From Myxococcus stipitatus DSM 14675 (GTDB lineage Bacteria; Myxococcota; Myxococcia; Myxococcales; Myxococcaceae): 64,000 nt of DNA. The stretch lies in assembly GCF_000331735.1 (NCBI RefSeq), contig NC_020126.1:4774001-4838000 (forward strand), written 5' to 3'. This document shows positions 28,263 through 33,773 of the stretch, piece after piece (the first letter of the stretch is position 1; every line of letters starts with the position of its first letter). Under the pieces are notes generated by a model. That model ran no database searches. It was not told the DNA's origin and saw only the letters and a list, made by a program, of their open reading frames with translations. The position numbers and the translations under genes were made by a program.

Positions 28263-28502
28263 TCAGATGCAGTTTCGGAAGCAGGGCGTGAACAGTCGCA
28301 GGCACCTGGCTTCACAGGTGGGGTCGTTCTCGCCACAACCCTCCAGACACCGGTCGTACCCATCGAGACAGGCATCGCAGGATGGAGCCAGATCTGCATC
28401 GCTCTCTTCCAGGATGTCGGTGTCATCGTGGGACTCCGCTGCGATGGATGCCCCTGCGCCCAGACACAGCCCGATGAACATCGTCAGTAGTGCGGTCTTC
28501 AT
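28263..28502 (-). CDS. Small exported Cys-rich peptide
   Basis: 79 residues. A signal peptide (hydrophobic segment ending S-I-A-A-E) is followed by an acidic stretch and then a compact cysteine-rich region: S-C-D-A-C, R-C-L-E-G-C, T-C-E-A-R-C, P-C-F-R-N-C. The eight cysteines in four pairs could make four disulfides or bind metal. ATG at 28502 has a G-rich site a few bases upstream. It is convergent with the DnaC-like gene. It is short but its composition and signal make it a credible gene. A DUF692-type enzyme gene lies 3 kb away and such enzymes modify Cys-rich peptides; linkage is speculative. Confidence 0.6.
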   Translation of the reverse strand: MKTALLTMFIGLCLGAGASIAAESHDDTDILEESDADLAPSCDACLDGYDRCLEGCGENDPTCEARCLRLFTPCFRNCI

Positions 28503-28757
28503 GTTTGCCCCCTACGTGGATTCCACTGTGTCTGGGTCTGCCGCTCACGGCGAAGCCCAGACAGGAGTGAAACGCAGTGGGCCGCAGCCCGTGCCTGGAC
28601 TCGTACCGGAGGGCAGGGGCCGGGGCTGCGTCTTGCCCGGACGCGGTTGCGTTGAGTTGGAACGCAGGGACTCAGGCTTCGGGCGGAAGCCCGCAGCTCA
28701 CGGGATTCGGTATGGGGCTTGCTCAGCGCATCTCGCTGGAAGGAGTGGCGCGACGAG

Positions 28758-30446
28758 ATGCTGATTTTCTTGAAGGCCCCGAGCGAGTCGAACGACGTCA
28801 TCACGACGCCTATCACTGACGTCATCTTCCTGGACAAGACCACGCGATACACGTCGAAGTTCAAGAAGCTGGCCGTCGACGCTCGAGAGATTGTTCCGTG
28901 GTACCGCCTGGATGCCGACCCCATGGACTTCGGGAAGCGCCTGCTTCGCGAAGCGGCGACGGACAAAATGTGTGCGGCGCTCATGGCCCGCGCCACCGAA
29001 GTGTGGGGTGTCGACTTCAAGATTCAAGGAGAGGAGTTCGTCACCAAAGAAGTCCAGGCTCACTATGTGAAGCTGCTCAAGGTCTGGCTCAGTCCGCTAT
29101 CCGGGAGCATTGGCATCAGTGACCGCAGGGCACATCGAGCCACCGTGGACGGGCCAGACGGACAGTATGAACAAGTCTGGAAGAAGCTCGCCCTCGACAA
29201 GAAGGCCCTGGGCGACCTGGAGGCGTTGGACTTCTTCAAGGGGATGAATGTCGCTGGCCGGCGAGACCGGAGCCAGATCTACCGCAATGTGACAGAGGCC
29301 GCGCGCGCCCTGGTGGGGGAGGTCACTTCCTGGCCATCACGGTCCATCGAGAAGCTCGCGGTGCTGTCCTTGCTGCGCAGCAAAGCACTGGTGGACTACC
29401 AGCAACAGATGCTCCAGGCCGCGGCACAGGCCTTGAGTGACAGTTCGCGCACCCCTGCGCCCAGGTTCAAGCAGTGGGAGTATCTGCCGTACTACCTGAG
29501 GGGCAAGCCGTTGGAGCGGACTGACGAAGATACCGCAAGGCCTCTCGTCCTGGGGGCGCTCTACGATGCCTTGGGCGAGGCAATGACCAAGGAAGGGAGT
29601 GACGAGCGCAAGCTCATCGATGACTTCAAGTTGTTCAATAAGGGGGACGAGTATCGCCGCTGGCGACTGCTCCCTCCGGTGGTGAGGAATCAGGTCCTCA
29701 TCAGTGATCTGCCGCGCATCATGTTCGATGGGAAGCTCGAGTCCGAGCACTGGCGGATCCAGTTCAAGGAGTCGGCACTGAAGACGCTGTCCGACAAGAG
29801 TGTGGGAATCGGTGGCTGGGATGTGAAGATGAAACAACACCCCGCGGCGGTGCCCCATGAGCCTGGACATGGGCCCAGGGACCTCTTTCCGTTCGCGTCT
29901 GGCTGGTCTCGCAACGAGTTGTGTCCCAACGTGATTTCATCCAGGTTGATGCTTGCGCCGCTGTATGCGGGGACTTCGGGTCACAACCAAGGGCGCATCC
30001 TGGCCTGGCTCGAGCTCGCGAAGCGCGAGAAGTCGCTTGATGCGATTCCCCTGGGGCTTGTCATCTCCGCAGGGTACTCGGTGCTCTGGCGCTTGTATTA
30101 CGACAAGCGGGTGAGTGGCTTTCACACCATGTTCGAGACCTTCCAGGGGACCTACGTCGACACGACGGTGCGAGACCTGCGCGGTCTTCCTCGTCCCGCT
30201 GAAGACCCCGTGTGGAGTGCGGTCCTCGACGCCTCGCCCGAGGGGCAGACGAATGTGTCTACCTTCTGGTCGACGTGCATCAAGCTCTTCGGGAAGACGG
30301 GGCAGCCCGTCCTCCATGCATTCAAGTCCGAGCTCGCCAAGTCTCGAGAGGCCGCACTGGTTGACTTCCCAGGCACGGTCATTCCGAGGTGGAGCACGAC
30401 GGATGACGTCGACGCCACCGCGCCAGAGGTGAATACGTGGGCCTGA
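28758..30446 (+). CDS. Unrecognised 562-residue protein, possibly acquired
   Basis: 562 residues from ATG at 28758 (AAGGAG 12 bases upstream; a TTG at 28719 is an alternative). No signal peptide or membrane helices and no domain I recognise. The C-terminal third has an aromatic, Gly-containing segment (A-G-T-S-G-H-N-Q-G and L-W-R-L-Y-Y-D-K) that may be a conserved core. Codons ending in A or T are much commoner than in neighbours, for example AAA, GAA, TGT, ATT and CAA within 28950-29060, suggesting transfer or low expression. A PTP-like phosphatase gene follows after 66 bases on the same strand. Confidence 0.5.
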   Translation: MLIFLKAPSESNDVITTPITDVIFLDKTTRYTSKFKKLAVDAREIVPWYRLDADPMDFGKRLLREAATDKMCAALMARATEVWGVDFKIQGEEFVTKEVQAHYVKLLKVWLSPLSGSIGISDRRAHRATVDGPDGQYEQVWKKLALDKKALGDLEALDFFKGMNVAGRRDRSQIYRNVTEAARALVGEVTSWPSRSIEKLAVLSLLRSKALVDYQQQMLQAAAQALSDSSRTPAPRFKQWEYLPYYLRGKPLERTDEDTARPLVLGALYDALGEAMTKEGSDERKLIDDFKLFNKGDEYRRWRLLPPVVRNQVLISDLPRIMFDGKLESEHWRIQFKESALKTLSDKSVGIGGWDVKMKQHPAAVPHEPGHGPRDLFPFASGWSRNELCPNVISSRLMLAPLYAGTSGHNQGRILAWLELAKREKSLDAIPLGLVISAGYSVLWRLYYDKRVSGFHTMFETFQGTYVDTTVRDLRGLPRPAEDPVWSAVLDASPEGQTNVSTFWSTCIKLFGKTGQPVLHAFKSELAKSREAALVDFPGTVIPRWSTTDDVDATAPEVNTWA

Positions 30447-30512
30447 GCATGAAGGCGTGGACTGTTCGGACGTAGGCGGAAGGGAAGCGGTGGAGCGATA
30501 GTCGAGGCACCC

Positions 30513-31415
30513 ATGCTCATCCCTCCACTCGCCGCAGATGCGTCCTCCGCCCCGCTCGTACTCGACGACGACGGCGCGGAGGCTCGCCAGTTCCGGTCGA
30601 CGACGCAGCCTCCGGACATGGGGGGCCTCGAGATGCGAGGGCTAGAGGTGCTGCGTTGCTCGGGGAGCGCGCAGCTCTCGGTCTCGGGATATCAAGACGT
30701 CGTGCGGCGGATCGCGGAGGTGCCTCGGGAGCTGCTCCATGTCGTGGACCTCCGTCAGGAGTCCCATGGCTTCCTGAACGGAGCGGCGGTGAGTTGGTAT
30801 GCCGAATCCAACTGGGGCGCCGCGGGGCTGTCCGACGCGGAGGCGCAGTCGCTCGAGCATCAGCGTCTGCTCCTGCTCTCGCGGTCACCTCGCGTGAGGG
30901 TGAATGACGTGGCGGGCGTGAAGGGACGCGCGCCTCCGTCCTCTCGTGATTGGGAGTGTCATTCGGTGATGGACGAAGCGCGGGCCTTCGACCTTCTCCC
31001 GGGTCGCTACGCCCGGTTCCCCGTCACCGACCACACCCGCCCTCGGGACACCACCGTGGACAGCTTCATCCAATGGGTGCGCGGGCTGGACGAGCGAGCC
31101 CATCTCCACCTGCATTGCCGAGGAGGCAAGGGGCGGACCGCCACGTTCATGTGTCTGCTCGACATGCTCCACAACGCCCGGCACGTCTCGCTGGACGCCT
31201 TGCTGGACCGCCAGGCACGTCTGGGGGGCTATGACGTGCGCAAGGCGGCCGACCCCGCCAGTCCCAAGGCACCGTTCATCGCCGAGCGGCGGGCCTTCCT
31301 GGCTCGATTCCACGAGTACGCCCGAGAGAATCCCAAGGGCGGGCCACTGGGGTGGGGGGAGTGGCTTGCTCGGCGGCTCACCAACTCCGAGCCAAATCCG
31401 GGAGCGGTGGATTAG
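30513..31415 (+). CDS. PTP-like (phytase-type) cysteine phosphatase
   Basis: 300 residues. The P-loop is H-C-R-G-G-K-G-R-T (H201, C202, R208), the HCx5R signature of cysteine phosphatases. The general acid is in V-T-D-H-T-R-P (D173). The segment D-L-R-Q-E-S-H-G-F near residue 79 is a hallmark of bacterial PTP-like phytases (PhyA of Selenomonas type), so inositol phosphates are likely substrates; phosphoprotein activity cannot be excluded. Unlike secreted phytases, it has no signal peptide, so a cytosolic role or delivery by another system is implied. GAGG lies 5 bases before ATG at 30513. The DUF692-type gene follows after 10 bases. Confidence 0.75.
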   Translation: MLIPPLAADASSAPLVLDDDGAEARQFRSTTQPPDMGGLEMRGLEVLRCSGSAQLSVSGYQDVVRRIAEVPRELLHVVDLRQESHGFLNGAAVSWYAESNWGAAGLSDAEAQSLEHQRLLLLSRSPRVRVNDVAGVKGRAPPSSRDWECHSVMDEARAFDLLPGRYARFPVTDHTRPRDTTVDSFIQWVRGLDERAHLHLHCRGGKGRTATFMCLLDMLHNARHVSLDALLDRQARLGGYDVRKAADPASPKAPFIAERRAFLARFHEYARENPKGGPLGWGEWLARRLTNSEPNPGAVD

Positions 31416-31425
31416 GTTCCGCCGC

Positions 31426-33123
31426 ATGACGCAGGCTGTTTCGGATGCATGGACGTTGCCCTGGCGCGGCCTGGGGCTGAGCAGCAACCTGAGCACCTCG
31501 GATGTGCCTCAGCCCTACCGGCTGCTGGACTCCGCTCCGGGCCTCTTCGACTTCGTCGAGTACAGCGCGCCGCTCTCCCTCGATGAGGCGCGCACCCAGG
31601 CGAGCCTGTTCTCCGAGATGTGGAGCCGGCGCGCCGAGGTCCCCGTGCTCTTCCACCCCGTGCACCTCAACCTGTGGGGGCCGGAGCTGGAGCCTGTCTC
31701 GGCGCTCCAGGCGCTGGATGCCCATGCCCGCACCGTGGGCAGCCCGTGGGTGGGCAACGACGTGGGGTGGTGGCACTCGCGAGGCCAGCCCTTCCCGGGC
31801 TACCTCTACCTCACACCTCCGTTCAGCGAGGCGGGTCTGGCCGACTGCGTGGCGCATGCGCTCCATGTCCAGTCGCAGCTCTCCATGCCCCTCGTGCTGG
31901 AGAATCCCGCGGTCATGGCACGGCGGGGCCAGTGGCACGTCCTCGACTTCATGGCGAAGCTGCATGCCCGCACGGGACTGCCGCTGCTGTTGGACCTGGG
32001 GCACCTCTTCAGCCACCAGCTCTCCTCGGGGCTGCCCTTGGACGCGGGACTCGATGGCTTCCCGCTCGAGCAGGTGGTCGAGATCCACATCGCCGGCGGC
32101 GTCGTGTCGCGGCGAGGCGCGCGCGCGTTCTACGTGGATGACCACTCGCAGCCCGTGCGCGAGGAGCTGTTCCAGCTCCTGGAATCCGTCTTGCCGCGGT
32201 GTGCCTCGCTCCGGGCCGTCACCTTCGAGGGCGATGGCCACCCGGCCGAGGTGGCCCAGCTCTCCCTGAAGAGGCTGCGCCGGCTCGTCCCCCAGGGCGC
32301 CCGTCCTCCGCTTCAGCTGCGCCCCCCGGAGTCCCTCGCCGTGCCTCCGCTCACCGGGGAGAGTCGCCCCTGGGAGCTCTTCGAGGCGGGCCACGCGGTC
32401 GTGCCCGCGGAGAAGGTCGAGGACCCCGAGGGGACCCTGGCGGACCAGGACTTCCGCCTGGCCGTGGTGGCCGAGACGCTGGATAAGGACTGGCCGCTAT
32501 CACGGCTGCTGCTCGCCGGGACCCGGGCGCAGCTGGCCGCCTTCACGGCCTCGCGAGAGTACCGGAACCTCTTCGAGGGGGGAGGGCGCTCGCTGACGCA
32601 GGTCTTCTCGGCCTGGGCGATGCGCCGGTTGCGGGAGCAACCCGATGACGGTGCCTCCGCCGCCCTGAGCCTGGAGATGCTTGTCCCCACCGCCTTCATG
32701 AAGGCCGCGCCCCCTCCGGCACCAGGGCAGGTGGGGCTGACGGAGGAGGCCCGTCCCGCCAGCTTCCCCGTGAATCTCTCCGAGCTGGTCTTCGCGGCGC
32801 GCACTGTACGCAGGCATCTCACCGCCCGTGCGTGGGCTTGCGGGGAGCTGGACCTGTCGGGACTGGAGGCGTTGGCCCAGGTGGCACGGCGCCCCGGTGC
32901 GGAGCCCTGGAGCTTCGCCGTCCGACGGAAGGCCCCCGGCCATGAGGTGCTGAACGTCTCGAGGGGGCTGGCGGAGCTGCTCCGGGAGCTGGGCTCACGG
33001 CCTCGGGCGGTGGAATCCGTGCCCCCGGAGGTGCTCGCCGAGGGCCTCTGGCACCGGCTGATCCGCCTGGGTGATACATCTGGAGTAGAGCGCCCCCTTG
33101 CACAGGCTCGTCCGGTAAGGTAG
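31426..33123 (+). CDS. DUF692/MNIO-type iron enzyme with C-terminal extension
   Basis: 565 residues. The N-terminal 280 match the TIM-barrel DUF692 (MNIO, MbnB-like) pattern, with candidate metal ligands F-H-P-V-H (77-80), L-E-N-P (E159), L-L-D-L-G-H (D190, H193), E-I-H-I-A-G (H221), V-D-D-H-S (D239, H240) and F-E-G-D (E268). MNIO enzymes are multinuclear iron oxidases that modify cysteine or other residues in precursor peptides, usually with a separate partner protein. Here about 285 further residues follow, perhaps a fused partner or a new domain. It starts 10 bases after the phosphatase gene and ends 11 bases before udk. Confidence 0.7.
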   Translation: MTQAVSDAWTLPWRGLGLSSNLSTSDVPQPYRLLDSAPGLFDFVEYSAPLSLDEARTQASLFSEMWSRRAEVPVLFHPVHLNLWGPELEPVSALQALDAHARTVGSPWVGNDVGWWHSRGQPFPGYLYLTPPFSEAGLADCVAHALHVQSQLSMPLVLENPAVMARRGQWHVLDFMAKLHARTGLPLLLDLGHLFSHQLSSGLPLDAGLDGFPLEQVVEIHIAGGVVSRRGARAFYVDDHSQPVREELFQLLESVLPRCASLRAVTFEGDGHPAEVAQLSLKRLRRLVPQGARPPLQLRPPESLAVPPLTGESRPWELFEAGHAVVPAEKVEDPEGTLADQDFRLAVVAETLDKDWPLSRLLLAGTRAQLAAFTASREYRNLFEGGGRSLTQVFSAWAMRRLREQPDDGASAALSLEMLVPTAFMKAAPPPAPGQVGLTEEARPASFPVNLSELVFAARTVRRHLTARAWACGELDLSGLEALAQVARRPGAEPWSFAVRRKAPGHEVLNVSRGLAELLRELGSRPRAVESVPPEVLAEGLWHRLIRLGDTSGVERPLAQARPVR

Positions 33124-33134
33124 GTCGCGCCGCA

Positions 33135-33773
33135 ATGACGTCGTCACCCCTCGTTATCGGAATCGCGGGTGGCACCGCGTCCGGCAAGACCACCGTCGCC
33201 CGAAAGGTCCGTGAGGCGCTTGCCGATTGCCGCGTGGCCTTCATTGATCAGGACTCGTACTACCGGGACCTGAAGGACCTCCCCATCGCCGACCGCCGGG
33301 AGGTCAACTTCGACCATCCCGATGCGTTCGACATTGAGTTGCTGGTGCGACACCTGCGGGAGTTGAAGGCGGGGCGTCCCATCCAGAAGCCGGTCTACGA
33401 CTTCGTCACCTCGTCGCGTCAGCCCCGCACCATGGGCGTGGACCCGGGGGACATCATCCTCATCGAGGGCATCCTCGTCCTTCACATGAAGGAAGTGCGC
33501 GATGAGATGGACGTGAAGATCTACGTCGACGCGGACGACGACCTGCGGATCCTCCGGCGCCTCACCCGTGACATCAAGGACCGGGGCCGCGACTTCGACC
33601 ACGTCGTCAGCCAGTACCTGCGCCACGTGCGCCCCATGCACATGGGCTTCGTGGAGCCGTCCAAGCACTTCGCGGACATCATCATTCCGCACGGCGGCAA
33701 CAACGAGATCGCCATCAGCATGCTGGTGGGCGCGCTGCGGGGGAAGCTCTCCGCGCCGCAGCCTCGCGAGTAG
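33135..33773 (+). CDS. udk: Uridine kinase
   Basis: 212 residues, the usual length. It phosphorylates uridine and cytidine in pyrimidine salvage. Walker A is G-G-T-A-S-G-K-T-T near the N-terminus; I-D-Q-D-S-Y-Y and F-D-H-P-D-A-F-D, both hallmarks of uridine kinase, follow, and the I-L-I-E-G-I-L-V strand is present. It lies 11 bases after the DUF692-type gene, so it may be co-transcribed, though its function is general. Confidence 0.92.
   Translation: MTSSPLVIGIAGGTASGKTTVARKVREALADCRVAFIDQDSYYRDLKDLPIADRREVNFDHPDAFDIELLVRHLRELKAGRPIQKPVYDFVTSSRQPRTMGVDPGDIILIEGILVLHMKEVRDEMDVKIYVDADDDLRILRRLTRDIKDRGRDFDHVVSQYLRHVRPMHMGFVEPSKHFADIIIPHGGNNEIAISMLVGALRGKLSAPQPRE

What the first reader, a model, noticed from the sequence alone, without database searches (positions are those of the whole stretch)
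28263..33123. Possible MNIO (DUF692) peptide-modifying locus with a Cys-rich peptide nearby
The gene at 31426-33123 keeps the metal-ligand pattern of DUF692/MNIO enzymes (H77, H80, E159, D190, H193, H221, D239, H240, E268). Established members modify Cys-rich or other precursor peptides and usually need a separate partner protein. Here about 285 extra residues follow the barrel, perhaps a fused partner. A 79-residue exported peptide with eight cysteines lies 3 kb away on the other strand. The pairing is inference: the genes are not one operon and unrelated genes lie between.
Basis: partly seen in the sequence, partly recalled or inferred. Interest (0 to 1): 0.7.

Follow-up and report, generated by a model that had tools for sequence, protein, structure and literature searches.

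The report
Iron peptide-oxidase fused to its partner
Most fruiting myxobacteria of this family carry one protein in which an iron-dependent peptide-modifying enzyme is fused to the helper protein it normally needs as a separate subunit; its iron site looks rearranged and its substrate is not encoded next to it, so what it modifies is unknown.

Summary
The gene at 31426-33123 is a real MNIO (DUF692) enzyme (Pfam PF05114, E 2.3e-29). Its ~250-residue C-terminal half has no sequence match. Folded alone, its best PDB matches are the known MNIO partner proteins: TglI (Z 10.4), NGO1945 (Z 8.0) and MbnC (Z 5.8), against 4.4 for the best unrelated chain.

It is single-copy in 75 of 96 genomes of its family (Myxococcaceae); the partner half was never found unfused in 195 Myxococcota genomes. 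It belongs to a distinct MNIO clade in which a site-1 histidine is Asp (D112) and the site-3 asparagine is His (H193).

The Cys-rich peptide pairing fails: the peptide is syntenic only in one near-identical sister species, its homologues occur in 17 of 96 genomes elsewhere, and no conserved small ORF lies near the enzyme across genera. The constant neighbour is udk; in deep branches the enzyme ends a MacAB-TolC-type exporter operon.

Best reading: a self-contained peptide/protein oxidase acting in trans, probably a C-H hydroxylase. Substrate unknown. New variant of a known kind.

The parts
31426..33123 (+). MNIO-partner fusion protein, 565 aa (orthologues usually end near residue 549)
31426..32295 (+). 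MNIO TIM-barrel domain, residues 1-290
   Evidence: PF05114 E 2.3e-29; model matches TglH 8hi7_B, Z 26.1, 271 aligned
31654..31656 (+). codon of H77, site-1 ligand (TglH His71)
   Evidence: invariant in A2
31759..31761 (+). codon of D112, at the position of the second site-1 histidine (TglH His107)
   Evidence: invariant; ligand role from PMC10880893
32002..32004 (+). codon of H193, at the position of the site-3 asparagine (TglH Asn187)
   Evidence: invariant; ligand role from PMC10880893
32368..32886 (+). fused partner, helical docking domain (residues 315-487), TglI/DUF2063-like fold
   Evidence: model mf2511eb390cd, top hits 8hi7_A, 3dee, 7dz9_C
32908..33069 (+). winged-helix / RRE-like end (residues 495-548: strand-strand-helix-helix-strand); shortened or missing in deep branches
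   Evidence: VIA alignment to TglI runs to model residue 239
33135..33773 (+). udk (uridine kinase), 11 bp downstream; most constant neighbour, not thought part of the system
   Evidence: PRK05480 E 3.8e-83; synteny

Best explanation
The gene encodes a one-chain version of the MNIO holoenzyme: an iron-binding TIM barrel (residues 1-290) joined by a short linker to its own partner protein (a helical docking domain plus a winged-helix, RRE-like end). The partner half should dock on the barrel, as TglI does on TglH, hold the substrate and help bring the iron cluster to its active state; the barrel then uses O2 to oxidise a residue of a peptide or protein. The iron site is rearranged relative to MbnB/TglH/BufB: the second site-1 His is Asp, and the site-3 Asn is His, which would give site 3 a His-Asp-His set. 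I infer that the reaction is more likely a C-H hydroxylation or related oxidation than the Cys-to-heterocycle chemistry of the bufferin and methanobactin enzymes. The substrate is encoded elsewhere in the genome. Shown here: MNIO barrel, partner-like fold, conservation, ligand substitutions, absence of a conserved neighbouring precursor. Inferred: docking, substrate class, chemistry. Rough step probabilities: active MNIO 0.9; C-terminal half is a partner 0.9; acts in trans on a ribosomally made peptide or protein 0.65; non-Cys chemistry 0.55.
For: PF05114 E 2.3e-29. Full-length model pLDDT 89.8, pTM 0.85; barrel matches TglH at Z 26.1. C-terminal half folded alone: pLDDT 89.3; Foldseek ranks 1-3 of 350,542 chains are TglI, TglI, NGO1945 (E 1.7e-4, 3.0e-4, 4.4e-3); VIA Z 10.4, 9.9, 8.0 and MbnC 5.8, next unrelated 4.4. 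All ligand positions invariant in 32 orthologues. Same His-to-Asp and Asn-to-His changes in unfused MNIOs of other Myxococcota (L222-L225), each followed by a separate 247-283-aa gene that overlaps by 4 bp or nearly abuts. This clade separates from canonical MNIOs with support 100/98. A clade member on a Piscinibacter plasmid sits in an std-type cluster (carbamoyltransferase, TfuA, peptide ending SNKARQKPW); the std MNIO hydroxylates homocitrulline, not Cys (PMC13174530). An engineered HvfB-HvfC fusion in the same order is active and more productive than the co-expressed subunits (PMC13419390).
Against: No sequence-level proof that the C-terminal half is a DUF2063-type partner: no Pfam hit above noise in 30 members, no PDB sequence hit, and the profile match to DUF2063 partners (score 20.0) is no better than the best control. 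The match to TglI has a high rmsd (6.8 A over 206 residues). The RRE-like end is poorly conserved and is truncated in deep branches. No precursor, protease or maturation gene is conserved next to it. Some tree branches are very long. The StdE sequence itself was not available, so its ligand set is inferred from one Piscinibacter relative.
Confidence: 0.7

Rival explanations
1. One reading: the fused MNIO modifies the 79-aa exported Cys-rich peptide encoded 3 kb away.
For: Both are in this genome and in sister genome G009, and all 17 genomes with a peptide homologue also have the enzyme.
Against: 58 of 75 enzyme-bearing genomes have no detectable peptide homologue; 14 of the 17 are in the same genus, so the overlap is explained by descent; only G009 has it at this locus; the upstream region carrying it is variable while the enzyme and udk are constant. 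Sequence search with such short proteins is not fully sensitive.
Confidence: 0.03
2. A Cys-oxidising MNIO of bufferin/methanobactin type working in trans on a copper- or metal-binding peptide.
For: Most characterised MNIOs act on Cys, and sizeable proportions of precursors are not next to an MNIO gene (PMC12452194). The genome has two other MNIOs, one with a DUF2063 partner and one beside a TIGR04222 gene.
Against: The site-1 iron that binds the substrate thiolate has two His in MbnB (PMC13419390); one of them is Asp here. The clade is separate from bufferin MNIOs. TIGR04222 is patchy (31/92 genomes) and sits beside the other MNIO.
Confidence: 0.15
3. Not a RiPP enzyme: the fusion oxidises a conserved cellular protein or a small molecule, perhaps linked to the MacAB-TolC exporter next to which it sits in deep branches.
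For: Near-universal, single-copy, vertically kept gene with no conserved precursor or cluster. In L046, L047 and L048 it starts 4-14 bp after the last exporter permease gene. The RRE-like end is variable or missing in deep branches.
Against: The characterised MNIOs that I read about act on peptides; keeping the partner fold argues for peptide/protein binding. Exporter linkage is absent in Myxococcus and others.
Confidence: 0.2

Closest known systems
TglHI (3-thiaglutamate, Pseudomonas syringae)
   Same: MNIO barrel (Z 26.1) and helical-plus-RRE partner (Z 10.4) match chain by chain
   Different: Two separate proteins in TglHI; site-1 His107 and site-3 Asn187 are Asp112 and His193 here; no other known MNIO pathway genes nearby
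HvfBC / BufBC (oxazolin and bufferin maturases, DUF2063 partner)
   Same: MNIO plus partner in the same order; an artificial HvfBC fusion is active (PMC13419390)
   Different: Natural fusion here; canonical ligands in bufferin-type MNIOs; no signal-peptide precursor, DoxX, sigma or NrsF genes conserved here; partner not recognised by the DUF2063 model
StdDE (homocitrulline bis-hydroxylase)
   Same: A clade member with the same ligand changes sits in an std-type cluster
   Different: StdD and StdE are separate; no YcaO, TfuA, carbamoyltransferase or SNK-type peptide near the window gene
MovX and ChrH (MNIOs with extra domains)
   Same: Single-chain MNIOs with an added domain (PMC12452194, PMC13419390)
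   Different: MovX adds only an RRE/winged helix; ChrH adds a domain of unknown function; here a full two-domain partner is fused
MNIO-nitroreductase fusion (PflD)
   Same: Natural MNIO fusion; acts as a hydroxylase (PMC13060819)
   Different: Fused to another enzyme, not to the partner protein; PflD lacks the HxD site-3 motif, whereas D238-x-H240 is kept here

Membership tests
MNIO superfamily (PF05114, MbnB/TglH/ChrH) | Significant match to the family profile | tested here: met
   102.9 bits against a cut-off of 25, E 2.3e-29
MNIO superfamily (PF05114, MbnB/TglH/ChrH) | TIM barrel like TglH/MbnB | tested here: met
   Z 26.1 to 8hi7_B, 24.2 to 7dz9_A
Canonical MNIO iron site (as in TglH/MbnB/BufB) | Ligand set H,H,E,D,N,H,D,H,E | tested here: not met
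   Seven of nine kept; second His is D112, Asn is H193. E268 assigned allowing a one-residue insertion. A variant site inside the superfamily, not loss of the site
MNIO superfamily (PF05114, MbnB/TglH/ChrH) | Binds two or three irons and oxidises a peptide with O2 | not testable with these tools
   needs purified protein
MNIO partner protein, PME-type 1 | DUF2063 profile match | tested here: not met
   no PF09836 hit in P0001 or in 30 C-terminal regions
MNIO partner protein, PME-type 2 | Structural similarity to NGO1945/TglI without a DUF2063 match (PMC12452194) | tested here: met
   8hi7_A Z 10.4, 3dee Z 8.0, 7dz9_C Z 5.8; next 4.4
MNIO partner protein, PME-type 2 | RRE-fold winged helix | tested here: inconclusive
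   predicted strand-strand-helix-helix-strand at 495-548, aligned within the TglI match, but not searched alone and truncated in deep branches
Bufferin / known MNIO gene clusters | Precursor and partner genes adjacent | tested here: not met
   no conserved small ORF near the gene across genera; neighbours are udk and others
NCBIfam equivalogs ApyH, BufB, HvfB, ChrH, MbnB | Score above curated cut-off | tested here: not met
   88.6 vs 400, 86.4 vs 310, 42.4 vs 360, 34.3 vs 600, 19.2 vs 325

The most novel reading that the evidence does not exclude
A clade of MNIOs across several phyla has a repartitioned iron site (site 1 His to Asp, site 3 Asn to His, with position 80 changed from Ser/Gly to His or Asp) that makes site 3 a true His-Asp-His iron site and steers the enzyme to C-H oxidation. 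In Myxococcaceae it became a self-contained, vertically inherited enzyme that oxidises a conserved protein in trans rather than a dedicated RiPP precursor.
Probability: 0.2. Interest if true: 0.82.

Novelty: new variant of a known kind. Interest (0 to 1): 0.57.

Why it matters
Most MNIOs need a separate partner for activity, and the only full enzyme-partner fusion I found described is an artificial one. A natural, single-chain version would be a convenient object for structure and spectroscopy, since subunit loss is not a problem. The invariant Asp/His changes give a direct test of what iron sites 1 and 3 do, an open question in the field. A near-universal single-copy MNIO without a local precursor also suggests that these enzymes can serve a conserved function in trans in myxobacteria.

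Tried and rejected
Peptide as substrate: rejected on synteny and distribution. TIGR04222 protein as substrate: present in 31 of 92 family genomes and sitting next to another MNIO of the genome, so rejected. Local precursor search: small ORFs of 25-150 aa around the gene in 16 loci gave mostly shadows of larger genes and nothing constant beside the enzyme. The 9-Cys lipoprotein-like gene overlapping the MNIO stop in outgroup locus L045, the 13-Cys gene in L061/L062/L070, and the DoxX-like gene in L049/L051/L052 are each confined to one lineage. Sequence profile comparison of the C-terminal half with DUF2063 partners was no better than controls; against the separate genes following sister-clade MNIOs it gave score 24.8, P 0.01, 173 columns in register, against a control maximum of 20.0, suggestive only. 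The Streptomyces C-terminal extension did not align by profile. SNK-type std peptides near the myxobacterial genes: none convincing. Coordinates of the models were not available, so docking geometry was not compared with TglHI.
Full report
What is there. The ORF at 31426-33123 (+) encodes 565 residues. Pfam PF05114 (MbnB/TglH/ChrH) matches residues 36-279 at E 2.3e-29; the rest has no Pfam match. NCBIfam equivalogs for ApyH, BufB, HvfB, ChrH and MbnB all match far below cut-off, so it is an MNIO but none of the named ones. The 79-aa exported peptide at 28263-28502 (-) is as described, with eight Cys after the signal peptide and one inside it.

Conservation. The window lies in a 10.35-Mb genome; named relatives with the gene are Myxococcus, Pyxidicoccus, Corallococcus, Archangium, Hyalangium and Citreicoccus. 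Full-length orthologues, 46-96% identical and mostly 545-565 aa (465-510 in deep branches), occur once per genome. By my count of the list, 75 of 96 family genomes have it, plus one genome of a neighbouring family (G087). A profile of the C-terminal half found it only fused to this MNIO; no separate copy above noise appeared among 195 Myxococcota genomes. Barrel, helical C-terminal part and tail are all under purifying selection, the tail more weakly at distance.

The C-terminal half. Thirty members gave no Pfam hit above noise and no PDB sequence hit. The full model is confident (pLDDT 89.8, pTM 0.85). The barrel matches TglH at Z 26.1. Folded alone from 30 homologues (pLDDT 89.3), the C-terminal half has as its best matches among 350,542 PDB chains TglI (8hi7_A, 8hci_A) and NGO1945 (3dee); by VIA-align 2 the order is TglI 10.4, 9.9, NGO1945 8.0, MbnC 5.8, then 4.4 for an unrelated chain. 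These are the known partners of MNIO enzymes (PMC12452194; PMC10880893). The rmsd to TglI is 6.8 A over 206 residues, which I take as a difference in domain angle. The last ~55 residues are predicted as a winged helix, fitting an RRE, but deep-branch orthologues (L046, L049-L052) stop before or within it, as many PME-type 2 partners do. TglI too docks only through its N-terminal helical part.

Fusion in context. Sister MNIOs in other Myxococcota (L222-L225) are unfused and are followed by a separate 247-283-aa gene overlapping the enzyme gene by 4 bp or nearly abutting it. The profile match between these genes and the fused half runs in register over 173 columns, score 24.8 against a control maximum of 20.0: suggestive, not proof. 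An engineered fusion of HvfB to HvfC in the same order is active and gives more product than the co-expressed subunits (PMC13419390). That paper names MovX and ChrH as the MNIOs with extra domains; I found no description of a natural fusion to a full partner in the papers read.

Iron ligands. In TglH, Fe1 and Fe2 use His71, His107, Glu151, Asp184, His216 and Glu258; Fe3 uses Asp184, Asn187, Asp229 and His231. Aligned with TglH and canonical MNIOs the fused protein has H77, D112, E159, D190, H193, H221, D238, H240 and E268. So the second site-1 His is Asp and the site-3 Asn is His. Both are invariant in 32 orthologues, and the same pair occurs in the unfused sister genes, in a Streptomyces plasmid MNIO (P0002) and in a Piscinibacter plasmid MNIO (P0004). 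E268 lines up with TglH Glu258 only if a one-residue insertion is allowed; it ends the predicted last barrel strand. A tree of 45 barrels separates the Asp/His clade from canonical MNIOs with support 100/98 and makes the myxobacterial fusions one clade (96/98), with warnings on long branches.

Chemistry. In MbnB the site-1 iron carries two His and binds the substrate thiolate (PMC13419390). Loss of one His here, and the presence of a clade member in an std-type cluster (carbamoyltransferase, TfuA, peptide ending SNKARQKPW), whose MNIO bis-hydroxylates homocitrulline (PMC13174530), make a C-H hydroxylation more likely than Cys heterocycle formation.

Neighbours and substrate. Downstream udk is the most constant neighbour, 11 bp away in the window. 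Upstream is variable: the peptide is syntenic only in G009; the 28719-30446 gene and the phytase-like gene only in part of the genus. In L046, L047 and L048 the enzyme starts 4-14 bp after the second MacB-type permease of a Yip1-TolC-MacA-ATPase-permease-permease operon; in L041 42 bp. Peptide homologues occur in 17 of 96 family genomes, elsewhere in the genome except in G009 and the window; all 17 have the enzyme, but 14 are in the same genus and 58 enzyme-bearing genomes have none. No conserved small ORF lies beside the enzyme. The other two MNIOs of the genome are a bufferin-type one with a DUF2063 partner and one next to a TIGR04222 gene.

Verdict. A natural MNIO-partner fusion with a variant iron site, kept as a single-copy gene of Myxococcaceae, acting on an unknown substrate encoded elsewhere. 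Architecture is well supported; substrate and chemistry are open.

Noticed in passing
30513-31415: PTP-like phytase 10 bp upstream of the MNIO, best NCBIfam match the type III effector XopH (E 1e-57, below cut-off); present only in part of the genus at this place.
   Followed up: partly
28719-30446: Unknown 575-aa protein, 58-63% identical in species where neighbouring genes are 84% or more identical; fast-evolving family, sometimes in two tandem copies (L054).
   Followed up: partly
L261:2974-4575 (NZ_CP109155.1, Streptomyces europaeiscabiei plasmid): A 533-aa MNIO with its own C-terminal extension and the same Asp/His ligand changes, near a YcaO gene and a short peptide; perhaps an independent enzyme-partner fusion.
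   Followed up: partly
L264 (NZ_CP136338.1, Piscinibacter gummiphilus plasmid): std-type cluster: MNIO, 1112-aa carbamoyltransferase, TfuA, and a 57-aa peptide ending SNKARQKPW.
   Followed up: partly
L226:2239-3825: A 201-aa protein with six Cys encoded 6 bp upstream of an unfused sister MNIO; possible precursor.
   Followed up: no
L049, L051, L052 (upstream of the MNIO): Divergent 134-aa DoxX-like membrane protein gene in one genus; no Pfam hit at E 0.001.
   Followed up: partly
L134 (BNCN01000004.1): Record titled Comamonas sp. KCTC 72670 carries the gene at 70% identity like a Myxococcus; probably mislabelled.
   Followed up: no
G000:C1:5848599-5850277: TIGR04222 gene directly upstream of a second MNIO in the same genome.
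   Followed up: partly
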